Of a stretch of DNA of 10,749 nucleotides, positions 1,151 through 10,321 are shown in pieces (position 1 is the stretch's first letter; each line of letters begins with the position of its first letter). The position numbers and the translations under genes were made by a program. The stretch is taken from positions 1 through 10,749 of the forward strand of contig JAQUXG010000038.1 in NCBI GenBank assembly GCA_028692515.1, in the 5' to 3' direction. The notes under the pieces were generated by a model that was given only the letters and a program-made list of their open reading frames with translations, had not been told where the DNA came from and made no database searches. The DNA is from Kiritimatiellales bacterium. Lineage in GTDB: Bacteria; Verrucomicrobiota; Kiritimatiellia; Kiritimatiellales; Tichowtungiaceae.

Positions 1151-2464
1151 TCAGGTCTTATTTCCAAGCCGAATAGTGGCGGAGCGGGCGTGGGCGTCGA
1201 GGGTTTCGACGCGACCGAAGGCTTCGACAACCGAAACGGTTTCTTCGAGATCTTCTTTGGTGAAGTGAATGAGGCTGATGCGTCGGCGGAAGTCTTCGAC
1301 CGTCAGGCCGGAGAAAAAAGCCGCGGTGCCGCCAGTCGGCAGAACATGGCTCGGCCCGGCGGCGAAGTCGCCGACGGCTTCGGGCGTCCACGGACCCATG
1401 AAAATCGCGCCGGCGGTGTTGATCTTTTCAGCCACCTTTTCGGCATTCTTCACGATCACTTCCATGTGTTCGGGCGCAAAGCGGTTGCAGAGCTCGATGC
1501 CTTTTCCAATGGTTGGAACCACGACCAGAATACAGCCGCGCGCCATCACTTTGGCAACCGGCTCTTTGCGACTGAGCGTTGCCGCCTGCGTTTCAAGTTC
1601 GGCGCGAACGGCCTTGGCCAGTTTTTCGGAGGGGGTAATCAAGAGCGCTTTTTCGGAGCCGGTTCCGTGTTCGGCCTGCGAGAGCAGGTCGGCGGCGACG
1701 TGCGCCGGATTAGCAGAGTCGTCGGCCAGTACGGCAATTTCACTCGGGCCAGCGACCATGTCGAGGGCGACATCGCCGTAAACGAGGCGTTTGGCTGCGG
1801 TAACGTACGGCCCGCCGGGGCCGACAATTTTCTGCACTTTGCCGATGGTTTTCGTGCCGTAAGCCATCGCACCGATGGCTTGAATTCCGCCAATTTTATA
1901 AATTTCGGTTGAGCCCGCCAAATCGAGCGCAAAGAGGATGTAGGGATTCACCGTGCCGTCCGCTCGCGCTGGCGTACAGGCGACACGTTCTTTGACGCCG
2001 GCAACTTCGGCGAGCGTGAGGGTCATGAGTGCGGTGGAAGCAAGCGGCGCGGCACCGCCGGGGATGTAGGCACCGACGCGGTCGAGCGCGACAAATTTTT
2101 CGCCGAGCCAGCCGCCCTGCGGCGCGGGCATGCACCAGTCTTCCCGAAGTCCGGCGATGGCAAATTCGGCAATGCGTTTGTGCGCCTCCTTGGCGGCCTT
2201 TTTAAACGCGGCGTCGACTTCTTTTTTGGCGGCGGCGATTTCGACTTTGGTGACGCGCAGTGTAGCGAGCGTGACCGGCGAGCGGTCGAACTGCCGGGCG
2301 AATTTGACGACGGCGCGATCGCCCTTCTTTTTAATCTCGGAGAGCACGTCGGCGGCGATTTTGTCAGCGCCTTTTTCGACCGGCGGGCGGAGCAGGAAAT
2401 CTTCAATTTTTACGGAGCACCCTTTGGCGCTGTATTTCAGAATGGGAGCATCGGTCTTTTTCAT
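1151..2464 (-). CDS. hisD: Histidinol dehydrogenase
   Basis: A 437-residue protein of normal family length (E. coli about 434). HisD is a cytoplasmic zinc enzyme that oxidises L-histidinol to L-histidine in two NAD-dependent steps, the end of histidine biosynthesis (EC 1.1.1.23). Family motifs appear in order: AYIPGGAAPLAST (132-144), GGIQAIGAMAYGT (192-204), GPGGPYV (215-221), DMVAGPSEIAVLAD (235-248), QAEHG (263-267), RFAPEH (328-333) and GPSHVLPTGGTAA (370-382). The expected zinc and catalytic residues are present: Gln263, His266, Glu332, His333, Asp366 and His425. The start is ATG 2464 with no clear Shine-Dalgarno sequence; a TATAGC box (2476-2481) 11 nt upstream suggests a very short leader. 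No other his gene is in the window, so it is not in a compact his operon here. Codons 316-322 (VPTIGKG) carry one copy of the dispersed TTCCA-N5-TGGAA palindrome. Confidence 0.97.
   Translation of the reverse strand: MKKTDAPILKYSAKGCSVKIEDFLLRPPVEKGADKIAADVLSEIKKKGDRAVVKFARQFDRSPVTLATLRVTKVEIAAAKKEVDAAFKKAAKEAHKRIAEFAIAGLREDWCMPAPQGGWLGEKFVALDRVGAYIPGGAAPLASTALMTLTLAEVAGVKERVACTPARADGTVNPYILFALDLAGSTEIYKIGGIQAIGAMAYGTKTIGKVQKIVGPGGPYVTAAKRLVYGDVALDMVAGPSEIAVLADDSANPAHVAADLLSQAEHGTGSEKALLITPSEKLAKAVRAELETQAATLSRKEPVAKVMARGCILVVVPTIGKGIELCNRFAPEHMEVIVKNAEKVAEKINTAGAIFMGPWTPEAVGDFAAGPSHVLPTGGTAAFFSGLTVEDFRRRISLIHFTKEDLEETVSVVEAFGRVETLDAHARSATIRLGNKT
1504..1518. repeat. Dispersed palindrome TTCCA-N5-TGGAA, copy 1
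   Basis: TTCCA ATGGT TGGAA inside hisD. On the coding strand it reads as Pro-Thr-Ile-Gly and is followed by an A-rich tail. It sits in a segment between the nucleotide-binding core and the APEH motif. Confidence 0.7.
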
Positions 2465-2532
2465 GCGACTAGGTTGCTATACAGTGCTTCGCATCGCAAG
2501 AGCAGAATGATTCCGCTCAACGATCGACCTCC

Positions 2533-2548
2533 CTGTGTCGTCACACAG
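2533..2548. promoter_or_regulatory. Possible operator palindrome upstream of hisD
   Basis: CTGTGT-CGTC-ACACAG is a perfect inverted repeat with 6-bp arms, about 70-85 nt upstream of the hisD start. It could bind a dimeric regulator or form a small hairpin. There is no second copy in the window and no regulator gene nearby, so its role is unknown. Confidence 0.3.
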
Positions 2549-2554
2549 TGGATT

Positions 2555-2569
2555 TTCCAATGTCTGGAA
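2555..2569. repeat. Dispersed palindrome TTCCA-N5-TGGAA, copy 2
   Basis: TTCCA ATGTC TGGAA in the spacer between the UDP-glucuronate decarboxylase gene and hisD, extending to TTTT/AAAA on both sides (2553-2571). This 19-mer is the exact reverse complement of the one at 7791-7809 upstream of mutS. Confidence 0.75.
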
Positions 2570-2581
2570 AAATTCTGAAAT

Positions 2582-2594
2582 CCGGCCACGCCGG
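2582..2594 (-). terminator. Weak candidate terminator after the UDP-glucuronate decarboxylase gene
   Basis: Read on the minus strand about 22 nt after the stop codon, CCGGC-GTG-GCCGG forms a 5-bp GC stem with a 3-nt loop. A T-rich stretch (ATTTCAGAATTTTT) follows, but the T-run begins some 9 nt after the stem, so an intrinsic terminator is only possible. It lies between palindrome copies 2 and 3. Confidence 0.3.
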
Positions 2595-2609
2595 TTCCAG
2601 CCATTGGAA
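2595..2609. repeat. Dispersed palindrome TTCCA-N5-TGGAA, copy 3
   Basis: TTCCA GCCAT TGGAA, 8 nt beyond the stop codon of the UDP-glucuronate decarboxylase gene and 40 bp from copy 2. Confidence 0.7.
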
Positions 2610-2616
2610 ACTGCGA

Positions 2617-3567
2617 TTATGCGTACTGTTTGAAGTATTTGATGGTGTGCTTGAGGCCTTCTTCGAGCGGCACTTTCGGTTCCCATCCCAGTTTTTCTTT
2701 GGCAACGGTGATATTCGGCTGGCGCTGTTTCGGGTCATCAGACGGAAGCGGCTCGAAAATCAGTTCGGATTTGGAGCCGGTCAGTTTGATGACCGTTTCA
2801 GCCAATTCAAGCATGGTGAATTCACCGGGGTTGCCAAGGTTGACCGGGCCGGTAACGTCGTCGGGCGAGTCCATCAGCTTGAGGAAACCTGCGATCAGAT
2901 CGCTGACGTAGCAGAAGGAGCGGGTCTGCTGGCCGGAGCCGTAAATGGTGATCGGCTCACCGCGCAGCGCCTGCATGATGAAGTTGCTGACGACGCGGCC
3001 GTCGTGCGGGTGCATGTTCGGGCCATAGGTGTTGAAGATGCGGGCGACTTTGATTTGCACGTTGTTCTGGCGGTAATAGTCGAAGAAGAGCGTTTCGGCG
3101 CAGCGTTTGCCTTCGTCGTAGCAGGAGCGCGTTCCGATGGGGTTGACGCGGCCCCAGTAGGTTTCCGGCTGCGGGTGGACTTCCGGGTCGCCATACACTT
3201 CGCTGGTGGAGGCCTGGAAAATTTTTGCGCCGACGCGTTTAGCGAGGCCAAGCATGTTGATGGCCCCGATGACGCTGGTTTTGGTGGTCTGCACCGGGTC
3301 GTGCTGGTAGTGAGGCGGAGAGGCCGGACAGGCCAGATTGAAAATTTCGTCCACTTCAACAAAAAGCGGGAAGGTGATGTCGTGCCGCAGGATTTCAAAG
3401 CGAGAGTTATCAAGCAGGTGCGCCACGTTACCGCGCTGGCCGGTGAAAAAATTGTCCGCACAAACAACGGCGTAGTCACGTTTCAGCAGGGCTTCGCATA
3501 GATGGGATCCGAGAAATCCAGCGCCGCCCGTGACCAGAACCCGTTTATTGAAGTGGTATTTCTTCAT
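2617..3567 (-). CDS. UDP-glucuronate decarboxylase (UDP-xylose synthase)
   Basis: A 316-residue soluble extended-SDR enzyme. It should convert UDP-glucuronate to UDP-xylose with bound NAD (EC 4.1.1.35), supplying a pentose donor for surface polysaccharide. Visible features are the Rossmann loop GGAGFLG (14-20), the UXS signature [21 protein letters not shown] (78-98, in two adjoining pieces), the catalytic [15 protein letters not shown] stretch (121-135), the Tyr150-x3-Lys154 pair within RSCYDEGKR, and the nucleotide-sugar segment [10 protein letters not shown]. These distinguish UXS from UDP-glucose 4-epimerase and dTDP-glucose dehydratase. It lacks the N-terminal membrane anchor of eukaryotic UXS, as is usual in bacteria. 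The start is ATG 3567, with AGAGGA about 11 nt upstream as a plausible ribosome-binding site. It diverges from maf across 53 bp. No UDP-glucose dehydrogenase gene is seen beside it. Confidence 0.94.
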
Positions 3568-3603
3568 GCTTTGTTTATCCTCTGCTTTTTAAAACCTGCG
3601 TGA

Positions 3604-3612
3604 TGCTATCTT
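3604..3612 (+). promoter_or_regulatory. Extended -10 promoter of maf, nearly leaderless
   Basis: TGCTATCTT is an extended -10 box (TGC plus TATCTT) ending 8 nt before ATG 3621. Transcription would start at or just before the ATG, so the mRNA would be leaderless. I see no good -35 box at 16-18 bp. mutS has the same arrangement. The neighbouring palindrome copy 4 shares its last base and covers the start codon. Confidence 0.5.
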
Positions 3613-3626
3613 TCCACCCTATGGAA
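3612..3626. repeat. Dispersed palindrome TTCCA-N5-TGGAA, copy 4
   Basis: TTCCA CCCTA TGGAA overlaps the maf start codon (ATG 3621-3623). A protein bound here would cover the predicted transcription and translation start of maf. Confidence 0.65.
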
Positions 3627-4181
3627 ACCAACCAAAAACTGATTCTCGCCAGCACTTCGCCCAGGCGCGCCGAACTGCTCACCAGTGCGGGGCTTGTCTT
3701 CGCGGTGCAACCTCCGAATGCCGATGAAAAACTGCATGCCGGAGAAACGCCGGTGGAGTATGCCGTACGCACAGCGCGCGAAAAAGCGGAGAGTCTTCCG
3801 ATTGATTCCGGATCTGTTGTAATCGGCGCGGACACGGTGGTCGCCGCTGAAGGACACATTCTCGGCAAACCGGCGGATGCGGAAGATGCAACCGCCATGC
3901 TCCGCCTTCTTTCCGGCAAGCTTCACGAGGTTGTCACGGGGGTTTGTTTAAGGTCTTCTGAAAAGACCGTCTGTTTCCATGTGGCGACAGCGGTGCTGTT
4001 CCGTGATCTTTCCGATACGGAAATCTCGGCCTACGTTGCGACCGGCGACCCGCTGGATAAAGCGGGTGCTTATGCGATTCAAAACGGAGCGGCGGGCATG
4101 GTGCGGCGCATCGACGGCTCCTACTCGAACGTGGTCGGCCTGCCGCTCTGTGAGGTCATCGAAGCACTGGAGAATTTCTGA
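3621..4181 (+). CDS. maf: Maf-family nucleoside triphosphate pyrophosphatase
   Basis: A 186-residue protein, normal for the family. Maf proteins of the YhdE type hydrolyse dTTP/UTP and modified nucleotides to monophosphates and pyrophosphate, and have been linked to septum inhibition. Visible motifs are the substrate loop ASTSPRR (10-16), GADTVV with the catalytic Asp71 (69-74), LGKP (81-84), the TGV strand, DKAGAYAIQ (146-154) and GSYSNVVGLPL (166-176). Together they favour the dTTPase/UTPase class over the YceF class. Upstream in-frame GTG 3600 and ATG 3603 exist, but I chose ATG 3621: it opens METNQKLILAS as in homologues, and the extended -10 box overlaps the longer forms. The gene overlaps rsmI by one base (TGATG), so the two are probably co-transcribed and translationally coupled. 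Confidence 0.94.
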   Translation: METNQKLILASTSPRRAELLTSAGLVFAVQPPNADEKLHAGETPVEYAVRTAREKAESLPIDSGSVVIGADTVVAAEGHILGKPADAEDATAMLRLLSGKLHEVVTGVCLRSSEKTVCFHVATAVLFRDLSDTEISAYVATGDPLDKAGAYAIQNGAAGMVRRIDGSYSNVVGLPLCEVIEALENF

Positions 4182-4858
4182 TGGATGCGGGACTTTATAT
4201 CGTGGGCACACCGATCGGACACCTCGGCGACATGACCGCGCGCGGCATTGAAACACTCAAAGAGTCCTCGCTGATCCTCGCGGAGGACACGCGTACGACA
4301 CGCAATCTGTTAAATCATTTTGAGATTAAAACGCATTGCATCAGTTGCCATAAATTCAACGAAGCACAACGGTGCGACGAGATTATCGCCCGCATCCGTA
4401 ACGGCGAAGCAGTGGCGATGGTGACGGACTCGGGGATGCCCTGTATTTCCGACCCCGGCGCGCGCGTCGTCGGGGCCTGCCGTGCGGCAGGCGTCATGAT
4501 TACCTCCGCCCCGGGTCCGACTGCAGTCACGACCGCACTGGCGCTGAGCGGTTTCGGCGGACACGGGTTTCTCTTTGCCGGGTTTCTCGCGCGCAAGAGC
4601 GGCGCGCGGCGCCGGACGCTCGAACAGTGCGCCGCCCTGCCCGTGCCGGTGATTCTATACGAATCGCCCTACCGCCTGTTGAAACTGCTCGAAGAAATCG
4701 AAGCCGTTATGGGCGCAACGCGACGCGTTTTTGTGGCGCGCGAGCTGACAAAAAAATTCGAGGAACTGCTCAGCGGAACACCGGTAGAGATCCGGCAACA
4801 GTTCGGCGAACGTACCGTCAAGGGGGAGTGCGTTGTGATTGTTGATTCCGCCGGATAA
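4181..4858 (+). CDS. rsmI: 16S rRNA (cytidine(1402)-2'-O)-methyltransferase
   Basis: A 225-residue SAM-dependent tetrapyrrole-methylase-fold enzyme that 2'-O-methylates C1402 in the ribosomal P site, aiding decoding fidelity. Family motifs are IVGTPIGHLGDMT (7-19), LAEDTRTTRNLLNHF (33-47), TDSGMPCISDPGARV (82-96), SAPGPTAVTTALALSG (109-124), FAGFLARKSGARR (132-144) and LYESPYRL. Most family members read TDAGTPGISDPG, so Ser84, Met86 and Cys88 are mildly unusual. The protein is at the short end: it ends soon after GECVVIV and lacks the C-terminal helical extension of E. coli RsmI. Its ATG shares a base with the maf stop codon, so translation probably depends on termination of maf. No strong terminator follows. 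Confidence 0.95.
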   Translation: MDAGLYIVGTPIGHLGDMTARGIETLKESSLILAEDTRTTRNLLNHFEIKTHCISCHKFNEAQRCDEIIARIRNGEAVAMVTDSGMPCISDPGARVVGACRAAGVMITSAPGPTAVTTALALSGFGGHGFLFAGFLARKSGARRRTLEQCAALPVPVILYESPYRLLKLLEEIEAVMGATRRVFVARELTKKFEELLSGTPVEIRQQFGERTVKGECVVIVDSAG

Positions 4859-4876
4859 GGTTTTACATCTTATCAT

Positions 4877-4905
4877 TTGCACTGCTCTGGGGTGCCGACT
4901 AGACT
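4877..4905 (+). promoter_or_regulatory. Sigma70-like promoter for the STAS-phosphatase pair
   Basis: TTGCAC (4877-4882) and TAGACT (4900-4905) are separated by exactly 17 bp. Transcription would start near 4912, giving a leader of roughly 26 nt that contains TAGGGG (4921-4926) ahead of ATG 4938. The octamer ACTAGACT recurs at 10369-10376 before the last gene. Confidence 0.6.
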
Positions 4906-4937
4906 TTGGATGTTTAGAAATAGGGGTTTTTTGATTT

Positions 4938-5459
4938 ATGCAGGAAATGGAACAAAACAAAGACGATTTGCAGGCTGCCATTGCCGGCGACAAAATTTTC
5001 ATCCGGGTGACCGGACGCGGTTCCTTCAGGGTCAGCGCCACGCTGAAGCAGTTTATTGCCGAGATGATCTCGAAACAGACCATCTCCGCCGTAGTACTTG
5101 ATCTGGCCGATTGTATCGGCATGGACAGTACCTTTATGGGCGTGCTCGCCGGACTCTCCGGGCGTCTGAAGCTGACGGGACAGGCTCTGGAACTGATCAA
5201 CCTTTCTGAAAAAAACGAGAACCTGCTGGCCACGCTGGGCGTTGATCAAGTCATCACCCACTACAGCCACAGCCACGGACACTCCCTGCCCGAACAATCT
5301 GCGGAGTCGCTTCCCACCGCCGCGGCCACCAAAAAAGATCTGGCCGAAACCGCCTTGCAGGCCCACGAAACGCTGGTTGAACTCAGCGAGGAAAACCGCC
5401 CGCGGTTTAAACGGGTTATTGAATATTTGAAGGTGGATGTAGACCGACTGAATAGATAA
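4938..5459 (+). CDS. STAS-domain anti-sigma factor antagonist-like protein
   Basis: A 173-residue cytoplasmic protein. Residues about 15-110 form a STAS domain: GDKIFIRVTGRGSF, then VVLDLADCIGMDSTFMGVLAGL, where Ser64 after Met-Asp is in the position phosphorylated in SpoIIAA/RsbV antagonists, and LINLSEKNENLLATLGVDQVI. The last ~55 residues (DLAETALQAHETLVELSEE onward) are a predicted helical extension beyond the minimal ~110-residue antagonist. In known systems an unphosphorylated antagonist binds a kinase/anti-sigma partner and releases its target; the phosphatase encoded 4 nt downstream should dephosphorylate Ser64. The likely start is ATG 4938, with TAGGGG 11 nt upstream; in-frame ATG 4947 is an alternative. 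No kinase or sigma factor lies in the window, so the final target is unknown. Confidence 0.85.
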   Translation: MQEMEQNKDDLQAAIAGDKIFIRVTGRGSFRVSATLKQFIAEMISKQTISAVVLDLADCIGMDSTFMGVLAGLSGRLKLTGQALELINLSEKNENLLATLGVDQVITHYSHSHGHSLPEQSAESLPTAAATKKDLAETALQAHETLVELSEENRPRFKRVIEYLKVDVDRLNR

Positions 5460-5463
5460 ATCT

Positions 5464-6918
5464 ATGGAATCATCCATTCCAATCTGGCTTGTTGAACTGC
5501 TGATTTTTCTTTTTGGCGCACTGCTGTCCGCCGTGATCTGCCGGATACTGTGCAGAAGCCGGAAAACCCGGAAAAAGAATATGGAGCTCCGGCAGGAGCG
5601 CGAAATCATCTTCGATTTCATCCATAACATCGGCGAGGTTTTTGCCAACGCCGAGGAGATCAACATTGAATCCCTGCTCAAGCGGATTCTTTTCTTCGCA
5701 ACCAAGACGGGCAAATCCGCTTCCGGAGTTATTTACCTCTACAACGAAGATCGCACCCGGCTCTTCGCCCGCGCCGTCTCCGGAATTTTTCCCCCGCTTT
5801 ACGATGTCGAACAGGTGCACACCGAGCAGCTTCTTGCCAAATCCCAGCACCTTGAAACGCTGGTTAAAACCCGCCCGGTCGACAACGGAGAAGGTCTGAT
5901 CGGGACTTCCGCCGCCGTCGGAAGCGGCATTGTCATCGAAGACGCGGAGCTGGATGCGCGCGTTCCGGTCTATCATGACGCTTTTCTCCGGATTCATTCG
6001 CTACTGATCGTTCCGATGCGTTTTGGGAACGAAGTCCTTGGCGTCATCGCGCTGGCCAACCGAACCGATGGACAGCCCTTTACCGCCGGAAACCTTAATC
6101 TTCTTCAGGCGATGGCGGATCAAGCCTCCGTGCCGGTTCACTACGCCGGACTTAAAGCCGATCTGGATCGCAAGCGTCAGCTTGACCGCGACATGCAAAC
6201 CGCGCAACAGATTCAGATGTCACTCCTCCCGCTGGAGCTGCCCGAAAGCGAAGGCGTCCGGATCGCCGCCAGCAATCTGCCCGCATTCAATATCGGCGGC
6301 GACTACTACGACGTGATTCAGATCGACAGCGAACACCTTGGAATCGCCATCGCCGATGTCTCCGGCAAAGGGATCGGCGGCGCGATGATGATGGCGGTCT
6401 GTCAGGGCGTTCTACGAGCCCGCGCGCCGCAGGAGCAAAGTCCCGCACGCATGCTCTCGGAACTCAACCGTGTCTTGAGTGCCAACCTCGCCGAAGACAT
6501 GTTTATCACCATGCTTTATATGGTCTTCAACACCCGCACCCGCGAACTCAAGTTTGCACGCGCCGGCCACGAACGCCCGCTACTCAAGCGCCCCGGCGCC
6601 AAATCATCCGAAGCGCTTGATGCGGCCGGTATCGCCATTGGTCTGGCTGATGAGAAAATTTTTGACAGCGCCATTCAGGATGCCTCGGTGCAACTCTCTT
6701 CCGGGGATGTTGTTGTCATCTACACCGACGGGGTCACCGAAGCCCTTAATGACAAAAACGAGGAGTGGGGATCCGACCGTCTTCTGCAGGCCATCGATGA
6801 TAAGTCGGCATCCGGCGTTGACGAGCTGATTCAAACCGTCCGCACCCGGCTGGCGCGGCATATCGGTGCGCAACCGCAATACGACGATATCACCCTGCTC
6901 GCGTTAAAGGTCGATTAA
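5464..6918 (+). CDS. Membrane-anchored GAF-PP2C (SpoIIE/RsbU-type) serine phosphatase
   Basis: 484 residues. An N-terminal membrane segment (about 6-29, IWLVELLIFLFGALLSAVIC) is followed by basic RSRKTRKK, which places the rest in the cytoplasm. A GAF-like sensor domain spans about 45-225 (SGVIYLYNEDRT, GEGLIGTSAAVGSG, LLIVPMRFGNEVLGVIALANR). The linker DMQTAQQIQMSLLP (243-256) is typical of RsbU-like phosphatases. The PP2C domain keeps its metal ligands: GGDYYD (278-283), ADVSGKGIGGAMM (297-309), YTDGVTEA (420-427, Asp422) and YDDITLL (473-479). It should dephosphorylate the adjacent STAS protein in response to a ligand or state sensed by GAF. It begins 4 nt after the STAS stop without a strong ribosome-binding site, suggesting coupling. 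Its stop overlaps the convergent gene by 4 bp. Confidence 0.93.
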   Translation: MESSIPIWLVELLIFLFGALLSAVICRILCRSRKTRKKNMELRQEREIIFDFIHNIGEVFANAEEINIESLLKRILFFATKTGKSASGVIYLYNEDRTRLFARAVSGIFPPLYDVEQVHTEQLLAKSQHLETLVKTRPVDNGEGLIGTSAAVGSGIVIEDAELDARVPVYHDAFLRIHSLLIVPMRFGNEVLGVIALANRTDGQPFTAGNLNLLQAMADQASVPVHYAGLKADLDRKRQLDRDMQTAQQIQMSLLPLELPESEGVRIAASNLPAFNIGGDYYDVIQIDSEHLGIAIADVSGKGIGGAMMMAVCQGVLRARAPQEQSPARMLSELNRVLSANLAEDMFITMLYMVFNTRTRELKFARAGHERPLLKRPGAKSSEALDAAGIAIGLADEKIFDSAIQDASVQLSSGDVVVIYTDGVTEALNDKNEEWGSDRLLQAIDDKSASGVDELIQTVRTRLARHIGAQPQYDDITLLALKVD

Positions 6919-7700
6919 CACCGCTCTTGCAGGAAGCGCAGATTTTTCACCGCCTGATCAAACAGGCTGGCGGGTTCGTCTTCCCCCTTTTTCACCGTGC
7001 CCCTCACAAACTCAATGGCATAGCTGCCGCAAAACCCCGACGTATGCAGGACGCTGATCTGCTGCGCGCAATAATCCGCACGATCTTCCAAATTCAGAAA
7101 AAAGAACGGCTCGGCAACATCCCGAACCTGAACGTGCGCATGCACAATCCGCACGCCCAGTGCCTGCAGCCAACGTTCAACCTCTTCGCCGGTGAGCATG
7201 AATGGATGAAATATGGCCTTCACCCTTTTTTCAGAAAGCTGATCCAGACAGGCTTTGGCCAGCGCCGGGGTTTCGGCCGATGTGCCCGGATGACATTCGC
7301 ACCACGCCTCCACGCCGGCAGGAAGCGCTTCCATCCAGCGCTCGAAACAGCGCATCTCATCGCGAAGATTTTCAGGCTCCTTCCCGAAATTAAATTTGAA
7401 GGCTTTCGGCTTCAGCCGGGTAATCGCTTCCGCCGCCTTCTGCCGCAATGCCTCGCCGGCCGGGTCAAACGTAATGTAACTGTTGTACACCCTGACCGGC
7501 AGTGTTGCCTGACAGATCCGCTGGCGCTCCTGCTCATCCGGCTCCAGATAATGAGACTCAAAAAGTTCGATGCCGGAAAACCCGGCATCCTGCGCCGGCG
7601 AAAACCACTCACTGGCCACCAGAAGATTCGGCTGTCCCTGATGCTTGACCCACCGGTTCGGTTCCAGACCCACAGTCGCCAGATAAATTTCAGGTGTCAT
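6915..7700 (-). CDS. Sugar phosphate isomerase/epimerase-like TIM-barrel protein
   Basis: 261 residues matching the xylose-isomerase-like/AP-endonuclease-2 TIM-barrel superfamily, close to the usual 250-290. Candidate metal and catalytic residues at strand ends are Glu45 (GFSGIELFES), Glu135 (AWCECHPGT), His165 (AIFHPF), His188 (IVHAHVQVRD) and Glu230 (YAIEFVRGT), the pattern expected of a divalent-metal sugar isomerase or epimerase. The substrate cannot be read from sequence. A role in sugar or sugar-acid catabolism is the family norm, and members are abundant in polysaccharide-degrading bacteria. No signal peptide is seen. It is transcribed alone, convergent with the phosphatase gene; both stop codons use the same TTAA at 6915-6918. 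AGAGAG about 6 nt before ATG 7700 is a weak ribosome-binding site. Confidence 0.82.
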   Translation of the reverse strand: MTPEIYLATVGLEPNRWVKHQGQPNLLVASEWFSPAQDAGFSGIELFESHYLEPDEQERQRICQATLPVRVYNSYITFDPAGEALRQKAAEAITRLKPKAFKFNFGKEPENLRDEMRCFERWMEALPAGVEAWCECHPGTSAETPALAKACLDQLSEKRVKAIFHPFMLTGEEVERWLQALGVRIVHAHVQVRDVAEPFFFLNLEDRADYCAQQISVLHTSGFCGSYAIEFVRGTVKKGEDEPASLFDQAVKNLRFLQERC

Positions 7701-7792
7701 AACAACTCTCTTTCTTCAGATTCCGAAAAGCCGGGGCATTTTGCCGCAGGACGGGCGGGATTGAAAGCCCGACGATATGCGAACTGATTTTT

Positions 7793-7807
7793 TTCCAGAC
7801 ATTGGAA
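7793..7807. repeat. Dispersed palindrome TTCCA-N5-TGGAA, copy 5
   Basis: TTCCA GACAT TGGAA with TTTT/AAAA flanks (7791-7809), immediately upstream of the mutS -10 box. It is the exact reverse complement of the 19-mer at 2553-2571 upstream of hisD. Confidence 0.75.
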
Positions 7808-7815
7808 AAGGGCTC

Positions 7816-7824
7816 TGCTAACTT
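7816..7824 (+). promoter_or_regulatory. Extended -10 promoter of mutS, nearly leaderless
   Basis: TGCTAACTT ends 7 nt before ATG 7832, so transcripts would begin at or next to the start codon. No good -35 box lies 16-18 bp upstream; palindrome copy 5 occupies that place. No Shine-Dalgarno sequence precedes the ATG. maf has almost the same box (TGCTATCTT) at the same distance. Confidence 0.5.
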
Positions 7825-7831
7825 GTGCGCT

Positions 7832-10321
7832 ATGGTAGAAAAGAGCACACCGATGATGGATCAGTACCGGAGTATCCGTCGCGAACTCCCGGAAAACACC
7901 ATCCTCTTTTTCCGCCTCGGCGACTTCTATGAAATGTTTATGGACGATGCCAAGGAAGCCGCGCGCATTCTCGACATCACCCTGACCAAGCGCCACGACA
8001 TTCCCATGTGCGGAATTCCGTACCACGCCGCAGAGGGCTATCTGGCTCAGCTGATCGACGCGGGCAAAAAAGTCGCCATCTGTGAGCAGGTTGAAGATCC
8101 CGCCGCCGCCAAAGGAATCGTCAAACGCGCGGTGACGCGGATTGTAACGCCCGGCACGATTCTCGACGAAGGGACGCTTGACCGCGCCAAAAATAATTAT
8201 CTCGCGGGACTCGTGCGCGACGGCGAACGCTTCGGTCTCGCCATGCTCGACCTTTCCACCGGCGCGTTCTGGATCGAAGAATCGTCCAGCACCGGCGCGC
8301 TGGCGGGCAACCTCGCGCGCTACGCGCCGCAGGAGTGTATCGTGGCCGAGGCCTCTGCGAGCGATGAGGTTCTTCTTCCAATCCTTGGAAAAACACTCCA
8401 GACCGTTTGCGAAGACTGGACTTTCGAAGCGGCCAACGCCGAGGACACGCTGCTGCGTCACTTTAAGGTGCACTCGCTCAAAGGCTTCGGCTGCGAAAAC
8501 TCGCCGCTCGGCCTGCGCGCGGCGGGCGCGGTGCTTCATTATGTCGCCACCGAACTGCGCCGCAACCTCGCGCATGTCCGCCGCATTCAGGTGAAAAATC
8601 CCGACGACTATCTGCTGCTCGACGAAACGACGGTGATGAATCTCGAACTGGTTGCGCCGCTCAACCCGGCGCGGCAGGGCCCGAAGTCCACTCTGCTCTC
8701 CGTGATCGACACGACGCGCACGGCGATGGGCGCGCGGCTTCTGCGCGACTGGATTGTCCGCCCGCTGCGCGACCTCAGCGCGATCAATGCACGGCTCGAT
8801 GCGGTGCAGGCTTTTACGGATAATCGCACGCTGCTGGTGCAGACGCGCGAACTGCTCGGCGACATGCGCGACCTCGAGCGGATGATGTCGCGACTCGGCT
8901 CGGGCGGCGGCAACGCGCGCGACCTGCGCGCCGTCGGCGAATCGCTCGGCCAGATTCCAAAACTAAAAGAGCTGCTGGCGGCCAACCCGAATTTCCAAAC
9001 CTTGGAAAAATCACTGACGGAACTTCCAATCATTGGAAAAATCATTGACGAAGCGATCGACGACGAGCCGGCCGTTTCGACGAAAGAAGGCGGAATGATC
9101 CGTCGCGGCTTTTCGGCGGATCTCGACGAGTTGCGCGACGCGGCCGGCAAGGGCAAACAGTGGCTGGCGGAGTTTCAGGCGACGGAGCAGGAGCGTACCG
9201 GCATCAAGTCGCTGAAGGTTCGTTACAATAAAGTGTTCGGCTATTTTATCGAGATCACGAACAGCAATCTGTCGATGGTTCCGGAGAGCTACATTCGCAA
9301 GCAGACGATGACCAACGCGGAGCGGTTTATCACGCCGGAGCTGAAAGAGTACGAAAACAAGATTCTCGGCGCGCAGGAGCGGGCCGTCGCTCTGGAGTTC
9401 GAACTTTTCACGCAGATCCGCGGCGAGGTCGTGAAACAGATTGATGAAATTCAGCGCAACGCCCGCGCCGCGGCCGAGGCCGATGTGCTGGCCGCATTTG
9501 CCGAGAACGCGCTGACGCGCCGCTATGTGCGGCCGATGATGAGCGATGGCGATGAACTGCTTCTGCGCGACGGCCGCCATGCGGTAGTCGAACAGATGCC
9601 GGATGCCGAACGGTTCGTACCGAATGATACGACGCTGAATTGTTCCGATCATCAGCTGATTGTGATTACCGGCCCGAACATGGCGGGAAAATCAACCTAT
9701 ATCCGGCAGGTGGCACTGATTACGATTATGGCGCATATCGGTTCGTTTGTTCCGGCGAACGAAGCAAAAATCGGGCTGGTCGATCGCGTGTTCACCCGCG
9801 TCGGTGCCAGCGATGATCTGGCGCGCGGACGTTCGACGTTTATGGTGGAGATGCAGGAAACGGCGAACATTTTGAATAATGCGACGCCGAAGAGTCTGAT
9901 TGTGCTCGATGAAATCGGGCGCGGCACGAGTACGTTTGACGGCATCAGCATCGCGTGGTCGGTGGCGGAATTTCTCTGCACCAATCCGGCGGTTCGTGCC
10001 AAGACACTGTTTGCGACGCACTATCACGAATTGACCGATCTAAGCCTGACGATGCCGGGCGTGCAGAATGCCAACGTGCTGGTGAAGGAGCGCGGCGACC
10101 AAATCACCTTTCTGCGCAAGATTGTTCCCGGCGCGGCAGACAAGAGCTACGGAATACACGTCGCGCGGCTGGCGGGTCTGCCGCAATCGGTGCTCGAACG
10201 GGCCAATGAGATTCTGCGCAACCTCGAAGAGGGCGAGTTTGAGGCAGAAGGCGCACCGAAGATTGCACGGCATGGATCGCGCCGGAAAAAACCGAATGAC
10301 TCGCAATTGGATCTTTTTTAA
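7832..10321 (+). CDS. mutS: DNA mismatch repair protein MutS
   Basis: 829 residues (E. coli 853). MutS recognises mismatches and small loops and recruits MutL. N-terminal mismatch-binding domain: GDFYEMF, with the Phe-x-Glu pair Phe32/Glu34. Connector, lever and clamp domains follow. The ABC-type ATPase has Walker [10 protein letters not shown] (614-622), STFMVEMQE, Walker B with Asp693-Glu694 ([15 protein letters not shown]) and ATHYHEL. The protein ends in SQLDLF, a good match to the QLxLF beta-clamp-binding motif, placed at the very C-terminus with no tetramerisation tail like that of E. coli. An upstream in-frame TTG (7802) exists, but ATG 7832 is preferred: it opens [12 protein letters not shown] as in homologues and TTG lies in palindrome copy 5. 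Three more copies of that palindrome lie inside the gene. No mutL is in the window. Confidence 0.98.
8376..8390. repeat. Dispersed palindrome TTCCA-N5-TGGAA, copy 6
   Basis: TTCCA ATCCT TGGAA followed by AAA, inside mutS, read as Leu-Pro-Ile-Leu-Gly-Lys. It lies in the connector domain. Confidence 0.7.
8993..9007. repeat. Dispersed palindrome TTCCA-N5-TGGAA, copy 7
   Basis: TTCCA AACCT TGGAA in mutS, read in frame as FQTLE; first of the close pair. Confidence 0.7.
9024..9038. repeat. Dispersed palindrome TTCCA-N5-TGGAA, copy 8
   Basis: TTCCA ATCAT TGGAA in mutS, read in frame as LPIIGK; second of the close pair, 31 bp after copy 7. Confidence 0.7.

What the first reader, a model, noticed from the sequence alone, without database searches (positions are those of the whole stretch)
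1504..9038. TTCCA-N5-TGGAA palindrome occurs eight times in 10.7 kb
Seen directly: copies start at 1504, 2555, 2595, 3612, 7793, 8376, 8993 and 9024, all with an exact 5-bp spacer. Ten fixed bases predict about 0.01 copies in random sequence of this length. Copies lie in spacers, in two coding genes and over one start codon; most have extra T before or A after (TTTTCCA...TGGAAAA). The core five bases vary, so this looks like a protein-binding site or a tiny mobile or selfish palindrome rather than a copied long repeat. CCA-N5-TGG is also the architecture of the PflMI restriction site, but a restriction target would tend to be depleted, not enriched. Candidate roles are a nucleoid or chromosome-segregation mark (compare parS, matS, Noc sites), a global operator, an uptake or recombination signal, or a palindromic element tolerated in ORFs like Rickettsia RPEs.
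Basis: partly seen in the sequence, partly recalled or inferred. Interest (0 to 1): 0.8.

Follow-up and report, generated by a model that had tools for sequence, protein, structure and literature searches.

The report
Helically phased genome-wide palindrome in Kiritimatiellia
The chromosomes of many bacteria of one class are dotted with hundreds to thousands of copies of one short mirror-image DNA word, kept exact even inside genes and spaced so that neighbours face the same side of the double helix, which points to an unknown chromosome-coating protein.

Summary
All eight TTCCA-N5-TGGAA copies are real. The window's genome carries 754, against 0 for the reversed control. In 272 kb of it N5 has 133 copies, each other spacer length from 0 to 15 has 0-3. 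Enrichment is clade-bound: 34 of 43 genomes of the order and 23 of 84 other sampled genomes of the class have at least 50 copies, against 0 of 191 other genomes of the phylum. The full site is TTTTCCARNSNYTGGAAAA with a C/G centre. New and strongest: neighbouring sites lie whole helical turns apart, 126 of 129 within 1.5 bp of a multiple of 10.5 bp (about 44 expected), also when both sit in one gene (47 pairs). Arms are kept between species more than spacers. Three mutS sites arose by substitution, not insertion. Sites crowd just after stop codons and are not favoured between divergent genes. Best reading: the DNA site of a cooperative, sequence-specific chromosomal protein, not identified. 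Lrp, AbrB, MraZ and one XRE protein fail as the determinant; a Fis-type protein is an incomplete match.

The parts
1504..1518 (.). palindromic site TTCCA-ATGGT-TGGAA inside hisD
   Evidence: exact match; gene by Pfam Histidinol_dh
2555..2569 (.). site TTCCA-ATGTC-TGGAA, intergenic, after the stop of the epimerase gene (minus strand, 2617-3567) and before hisD
2595..2609 (.). site TTCCA-GCCAT-TGGAA, intergenic, 7 bp past the epimerase gene; 40 bp from the previous site (about 2 bp off helical phase)
3612..3626 (.). site TTCCA-CCCTA-TGGAA spanning the maf start codon (ATG 3621-3623)
7793..7807 (.). site TTCCA-GACAT-TGGAA, 39 bp before the mutS ATG at 7832; identical in G002 and in L016, absent in L017 and L074
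8376..8390 (.). site TTCCA-ATCCT-TGGAA inside mutS; identical in G002, one arm mismatch in L016, absent in L074 and L017 without any gap
8993..9007 (.). site TTCCA-AACCT-TGGAA inside mutS; arms kept in G002 and L016, not in L074 and L017
9024..9038 (.). site TTCCA-ATCAT-TGGAA inside mutS, 31 bp (three helical turns) from the previous one and in another reading frame; arms kept in G002 only of the four relatives

Best explanation
TTTTCCARNSNYTGGAAAA is the binding site of a sequence-specific, dimeric, self-associating chromosomal protein of the class Kiritimatiellia (a nucleoid-associated or chromatin-like protein). Dimers sit on the 15-19 bp palindrome; dimers on neighbouring sites 2, 3, 4 or more helical turns apart contact each other on one face of the DNA, so selection holds site spacing at multiples of 10.5 bp. 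The protein is tolerated in genes and gene ends but kept away from promoters, so new sites arise by point mutation where they do least harm, chiefly just after stop codons. Shown: the site, its clade, exact spacer, phasing, arm conservation, origin by substitution in mutS, genomic placement. Inferred: that one protein binds it, that dimers touch, and that the role is architectural. The protein is unidentified.
For: 754 sites against 0 control; 34 of 43 order genomes have at least 50. Only N5 is enriched. Adjacent sites: 126 of 129 within 1.5 bp of a 10.5-bp multiple, about 44 expected; inter-site DNA in 31/32-bp pairs is about as alike as unrelated inter-sites (0.31 vs 0.36 in G000; highest 0.38 vs 0.34 in other lineages), so not tandem copies. 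47 pairs within single genes: R=0.91 at 10.5 bp against 0.27 at 3 bp. G000 to G001: arms kept at 8 of 14 distinct aligned sites, control positions 16 of 628; arm identity 0.92, spacer 0.61, control 0.71. Convergent intergenic DNA denser than divergent in 6 of 6 groups; peak just after stops. No ori-ter gradient seen in the sampled parts of G001.
Against: No binding protein was found: Lrp/AsnC, AbrB-type, MraZ and an XRE protein do not track the site; a Fis-type protein tracks it only in family f2. Copy number varies greatly among relatives (5-2297 within genus g3), odd for a core chromatin protein. Exactness differs: G001 has 148 one-mismatch copies beside 165 exact ones, background about 24-48. 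Some f2 genomes have almost no triple arrays (0 in G015, 1 in G034). Phasing beyond 160 bp is weaker and mixed. Conservation counts are small; arms were kept at 0 of 3 sites in each of L017 and L074, and in G002 the spacer is nearly as conserved as the arms (0.92 vs 0.98). No binding or methylation data exist here.
Confidence: 0.56

Rival explanations
1. A DNA uptake signal: a competence receptor prefers DNA carrying the palindrome, and biased uptake plus recombination drive it to exactness in the core genome, as with DUS and USS.
For: Exact copies outnumber one-mismatch copies in the own genome (136 vs 37 in 284 kb); copies in coding and intergenic DNA, clade-bound, varying between relatives. 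DUS accumulate in core genomes with thousands of copies (PMC3630211, passages). ComEC is in 39 of 43 order genomes, and three of the four without it (G018, G020, G024) have 6-7 sites.
Against: Known DUS/USS are not palindromes (PMC1939737, passages). Uptake gives no evident reason for 10.5-bp phasing of neighbours inside genes. ComEC is also in low-site genomes G019, G022, G023 and G030.
Confidence: 0.13
2. A very large transcription regulon: a global regulator with tandem, phased operators.
For: Phased tandem sites are usual for cooperative repressors (recalled); some arrays sit upstream of genes, for example before a lysA-like gene (named by eye) in L223 and L226; a secondary rise occurs 0-100 bp upstream of starts.
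Against: Most sites in G000 and G001 are in coding DNA (55% and 75%), though only 8-23% in G053 and the other MAGs; density is lowest or equal-lowest between divergent genes in all six groups. Genes beside the 14 array loci read are mixed (by eye).
Confidence: 0.15
3. Gene-end roadblock or insulator: the bound arrays stop or slow RNA polymerase after genes.
For: Density in the first 50 bp after stops is 2.96/kb in G000 against 0.2-0.7 in the last 300 bp of genes; codirectional gaps: 21 of 24 sites nearer the upstream gene's end in G000. The window's 2540-2625 stretch folds well as RNA (-28.2 kcal/mol, z -3.1, 0 of 200 shuffles as good), so an RNA role of that pair is not excluded.
Against: 55-75% of sites are inside genes in G000 and G001. 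G001 shows a weaker bias (14 vs 10) and G125 the opposite (0 vs 4). A single palindrome is a weak hairpin (-5.1 kcal/mol) ending in A, not U, so no intrinsic terminator; the mutS pair folds no better than shuffles (z -0.6).
Confidence: 0.1
4. A mobile or selfish palindromic element (REP/BIME or RPE type) copied into spacers and genes.
For: Many copies, intergenic enrichment, clusters.
Against: The three sites inside mutS align gap-free with site-less relatives; flanks beyond the T/A extension show no consensus and inter-site DNA is unlike; arms stay more than spacers.
Confidence: 0.03

Closest known systems
Fis and Fis-type HTH proteins (Fis site architecture recalled)
   Same: 15-bp odd palindrome with a 5-bp core, pyrimidine-purine step at -4/-3, many sites in and between genes, sites about 3 and 4 turns apart at rrnB P1 (all recalled). 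A Fis-type HTH with an invariant LGTTRRILxYR segment (18 aligned sequences) occurs at E below 1e-20 in 22 of 43 order genomes.
   Different: Fis prefers an A/T core (recalled), here the centre is C/G. No match below 1e-20 in site-rich G008 (989) and G013 (579), nor in G053, G102, G125, G139, G181, G194; in G008, G053, G102, G181 and G194 only 19 of 20-36 candidates were scored.
AbrB of Bacillus subtilis
   Same: Half-site TGGNA, bipartite, pseudo-consensus TGGNA-N5-TGGNA, cooperative, many genomic sites (PMC11135676, PMC11497800, PMC9598496, PMC4022651, passages).
   Different: As printed that consensus is a direct, not inverted, pair; PF04014 has no match in site-rich G001, G005 and G034.
DNA uptake sequences (DUS/USS)
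   Same: Thousands of copies, clade dialects, core genome, coding and intergenic (PMC3630211, PMC1939737, passages).
   Different: Not palindromic; helical phasing not mentioned in the passages seen.
HIP1 of cyanobacteria
   Same: A short palindrome strongly over-represented in one bacterial clade (table mention and reference title seen in PMC1939737; rest recalled; one paper on it was not held).
   Different: HIP1 is one contiguous octamer; here two arms flank a fixed 5-bp spacer, with phased arrays.
H-NS phased high-affinity sites
   Same: A nucleoid protein nucleating at helically phased sites (PMC5418058, abstract and one passage).
   Different: H-NS reads an AT-rich motif (abstract), not an exact palindrome.

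Membership tests
DNA uptake sequence (DUS/USS) | genome-wide over-representation in a clade | tested here: met
DNA uptake sequence (DUS/USS) | non-palindromic word | tested here: not met
   site is an exact dyad; known ones are not palindromes
DNA uptake sequence (DUS/USS) | promotes DNA uptake | not testable with these tools
   ComEC present in 39 of 43 genomes, some low-site ones included
parS/matS/Noc-type segregation mark | concentrated or depleted near origin or terminus | tested here: not met
   density 0-0.65/kb in 28 sampled stretches of G001 without gradient relative to the GC-skew switch; stretches partly hand-picked
REP/BIME or RPE mobile palindrome | inserted as a unit, empty sites in relatives | tested here: not met
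   gap-free substitution origin at three mutS sites; intergenic sites not tested
Transcription-factor operator | placed in promoters | tested here: not met
   divergent spacers less dense than convergent in 6 of 6 groups, few sites in some
AbrB-bound site | AbrB/SpoVT protein present with the site | tested here: not met
   PF04014 no match in G001, G005, G034
Lrp/AsnC-bound site | protein presence or HTH tracks the site | tested here: not met
   match in 38 of 43 genomes, similar HTH in G030 (20 sites) and G034 (1554)
Fis-type nucleoid protein site | this Fis-type protein in every site-rich genome | tested here: not met
   no match below 1e-20 in G013 or G125 (all candidates scored) nor in G008, G053 (19 of 22 and 19 of 36 scored); f2 median 186 vs 27 sites/Mb with vs without, p=0.0015, f1 p=0.84, no phylogenetic correction
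Cooperative nucleoid-associated protein site | helically phased neighbouring sites | tested here: met
   126 of 129 adjacent pairs
Cooperative nucleoid-associated protein site | a purified protein occupies the sites | not testable with these tools
   none

The most novel reading that the evidence does not exclude
Kiritimatiellia own a chromatin system of their own: an unknown dimeric protein reads an exact 15-bp palindrome, oligomerises along one face of the helix, and has selected its sites into hundreds to thousands of places, bending protein sequence inside genes to keep both the palindrome and its helical phase. Some lineages lack it; in the two such genomes sampled no replacement palindrome showed up.
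Probability: 0.45. Interest if true: 0.87.

Novelty: new variant of a known kind. Interest (0 to 1): 0.74.

Why it matters
Nucleoid proteins usually read loose or degenerate motifs, so where they sit must be mapped by experiment. Here the genome itself seems to write out the occupancy map in exact letters, with the spacing rule included, across a whole class with natural absences. That would make two open questions directly testable: how a bacterial chromatin protein assembles along DNA, and how far selection for chromosome architecture can reshape protein-coding sequence. It would also give a handle on the biology of a little-cultured group.

Tried and rejected
Lrp/AsnC (PF01037) as binder: a match in 38 of 43 genomes, similar HTH in low- and high-site genomes (several of the eight loci taken over were read on the wrong strand there and were ignored). 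AbrB/MazE fold (PF04014): 23 of 43, missing from site-rich genomes. MraZ (PF02381): 40 of 43, low-site genomes included, site-rich G014 and G028 without. XRE coiled-coil protein L147:9255-9701: 19 of 43; absent from G003, G004, G005, G033 and G034, present in G030. Fis-type HTH (PF02954, then alignment A1): E below 1e-20 in 22 of 43 order genomes, but not in site-rich G008, G013, G053, G102, G125, G139, G181, G194, and present, in long frames, in site-poor class members such as G159 (11 sites), G200 (3) and G248 (1). Kept only as a lead.

A replacement palindrome in low-site genomes: none with 6 or more copies stood out in 173 kb of G030 and 112 kb of G022, and no excess of one-mismatch copies there. 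Terminator hairpin: weak stem, A-ended; window terminator scan at background, 13 found vs 15.0 in shuffles. Islands free of sites: G001 100-120 kb and 170-210 kb hold none and carry sulfatase-like and other accessory genes (named by eye), but 10-kb bins with a sulfatase signature as a whole differ only as a trend (10 vs 51 bins, mean 1.70 vs 2.90, p=0.07), so not claimed.

Literature: searches listed no paper that I recognised as describing the motif (one search matched 712 papers on two of three loose terms, 20 listed, none read); open-licence PMC only. Find-in-text on two Pontiella papers gave nothing on palindromes.

Limits: gene calls are home-made (hexamer model). Of the 20 own contigs, 14 were chosen because listed sites lay there; the other 6 and the 20 were picked by number. 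G001 stretches were chosen with the site list in view, the three because they were empty, those at set steps. Phyla other than the window's were not surveyed.
Full report
OBSERVATION. The eight exact TTCCA-N5-TGGAA copies are at the stated places; 200 shuffles give a mean of 0.01 and at most 1. The window is G000:C134, in a 1.81-Mb assembly of 288 contigs with 754 copies; the same pattern read backwards has 0. MutS relatives place it in Kiritimatiellia, order Kiritimatiellales (record titles). In 272 kb of this genome N5 has 133 copies, all other spacers from 0 to 15 have 0-3. The site reads TTTTCCARNSNYTGGAAAA; the centre is C/G in 96%.

NAMES. G handles are nameless. G001 (one 3.88-Mb contig; G+C about 53%) fits Tichowtungia aerotolerans (3.88 Mbp, 53.1%), and G015, G016 and G042 (4.4, 8.7, 7.4 Mb) fit the three Pontiella species (4.44, 8.66, 7.40 Mbp; PMC10880615, passages). 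So family f1, the window's, is probably Tichowtungiaceae and f2 Pontiellaceae. This is inference from size; the title of one close relative, L017, says Pontiellaceae.

WHO HAS IT. Family f1, one genus: 14 of 14 genomes, 181-1091 copies, control 0-5. Order: 43 of 43 have a match, but only 34 have at least 50 copies; range 5-2297, control 0-9. Phylum sample of 288: 11 of 13 order members, 23 of 84 other class members and 0 of the remaining 191 have at least 50 copies (counted by hand; the highest outside the class is 30). Low-site genomes G030 (173 kb) and G022 (112 kb) show neither a substitute palindrome nor decayed copies. So the site is clade-bound and lost, or never gained, in several lineages.

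PHASING. Distances between neighbours cluster at 22, 31, 42, 53, 63, 73 and 84 bp. Of 129 adjacent pairs up to 160 bp apart (37 in G000, 22 in G001, 8 in G002, 62 in other class lineages) 126 lie within 1.5 bp of a multiple of 10.5; about 44 are expected. Pooled, 152 pairs up to 160 bp give R=0.89 at 10.5 bp, and 69 pairs R=0.82 with the 31-bp lattice removed; beyond 160 bp the signal is weaker and mixed. In 47 pairs with both sites in one called gene R is 0.91 at 10.5 bp and 0.27 at 3 bp; 29 intergenic pairs give 0.88. The DNA helix, not the codon, sets the spacing. Inter-site DNA in 31/32-bp pairs is no more alike than unrelated pieces in G000, G001 and G002 and barely more in the other lineages (0.38 vs 0.34), so arrays are not tandem duplications. 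The window itself has one pair in phase (8993/9024, 31 bp) and one off by about 2 bp (2555/2595, 40 bp). Triple arrays: 17 in G000, 24 in G005, 82 in G014, 209 in G053, 233 in G125, but 0 in G015 and 1 in G034; the reversed control has 0 in all 16 genomes searched.

SELECTION. In gap-free alignments G000 to G001 all ten arm bases are kept at 8 of 14 distinct sites against 16 of 628 control positions (identity: arms 0.92, spacer 0.61, control 0.71). Others: G002 4 of 5 (control 28 of 156; spacer also 0.92), G004 1 of 1, G005 1 of 1, L016 1 of 3, G003, G009 and G013 0 of 1 each, L017 and L074 0 of 3 each. In mutS the three internal sites align without gaps to relatives that lack them; they arose by substitutions, some changing amino acids by eye. 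In genes the commonest reading is F-Q-x-L-E. Exact copies dominate in G000 (136 vs 37 with one mismatch) but less so in G001 (165 vs 148).

PLACEMENT. 55% of sites in G000, 75% in G001 and 76% in Pontiella stretches are coding, but 50% in G125 (7 of 14), 23% in G053 and 8% in seven other MAG loci; intergenic density is higher in all six groups (for example 1.76 vs 0.30/kb in G000). Convergent spacers are denser than divergent ones in all six: G000 4.5 vs 1.8, G001 1.2 vs 0.55, G053 4.25 vs 0, G125 2.74 vs 0, other MAGs 6.08 vs 1.87, Pontiella 1.85 vs 0.41 per kb; several groups have few sites. Density peaks in the first 50 bp after stops (2.96/kb in G000, 0.88/kb in G001), with a smaller rise before starts. 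Sampled density along G001 shows no origin-terminus gradient.

MECHANISM. A dyad with fixed half-site distance, arms kept more than spacers, and same-face neighbours over two to many turns is what a dimeric protein with dimer-dimer contacts demands. Placement in genes and gene ends rather than promoters argues for an architectural rather than a regulatory role. Those two sentences are inference.

THE BINDER. Not found. Lrp, AbrB, MraZ and an XRE protein fail. A Fis-type HTH with an invariant LGTTRRILxYR segment (18 sequences), fused to what looks by eye like a receiver domain in f1 and G014 and apparently stand-alone in Pontiella (start codons guessed), is present at E below 1e-20 in 22 of 43 order genomes. 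It tracks site density in f2 (12 with, 17 without; median 186 vs 27 per Mb; p=0.0015 without phylogenetic correction) but not in f1 (10 with, 4 without; p=0.84). It is missing from site-rich genomes elsewhere in the class and present in some site-poor ones, with the caveat that only 19 candidates were scored in several genomes. It remains a lead. Its nearest solved relative is the small regulator 2m8g (E=8.2e-12), then a NifA-type regulator, ZraR and FleQ.

KNOWN THINGS. DUS/USS share scale and clade-boundness but are not palindromes (PMC1939737 and PMC3630211, passages). AbrB shares the TGGNA half-site but the protein does not go with the site. HIP1 is the nearest precedent for an over-represented palindrome (mention seen, otherwise recalled). 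Five searches listed no paper on this motif that I recognised; the library is open-licence only.

Noticed in passing
G098: This genome of another class has 55 copies of the reversed control pattern and 0 of the motif itself; a different enriched palindrome may exist there.
   Followed up: no
G001 stretches: A second palindrome family, CCACG-N6-CGTGG with longer symmetric flanks, about 30 copies in 540 kb; possibly a CRISPR repeat.
   Followed up: no
L418, L422-L425 and others: Apparently stand-alone Fis-type proteins of about 60-70 aa in Pontiella-like genomes, with a receiver-fused form in the window's family.
   Followed up: partly
L100:1-12400: The contig with the ribosomal-protein genes (by eye) carries no site in its first 12.4 kb, while seven follow in the last 6.5 kb.
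   Followed up: no
G001:C1:170001-210000 and 100001-120000: 60 kb without one site, holding sulfatase-like, LacI-like and transporter genes (by eye); a trend only when tested over all bins.
   Followed up: partly
L070:3631-4496: Two similar arrays of palindromes (3631-3761 and 4387-4496) end in the same flank, suggesting one local duplication; the core there mostly begins with T or C.
   Followed up: no
G018, G020, G024: Small order members with 6-7 sites also lack a ComEC match; they are incomplete MAGs.
   Followed up: no
L260-L271: Only 12 stretches of the 2.9 million viral contigs carry a 31/32-bp pair of sites; whether these are host flanks was not checked.
   Followed up: no
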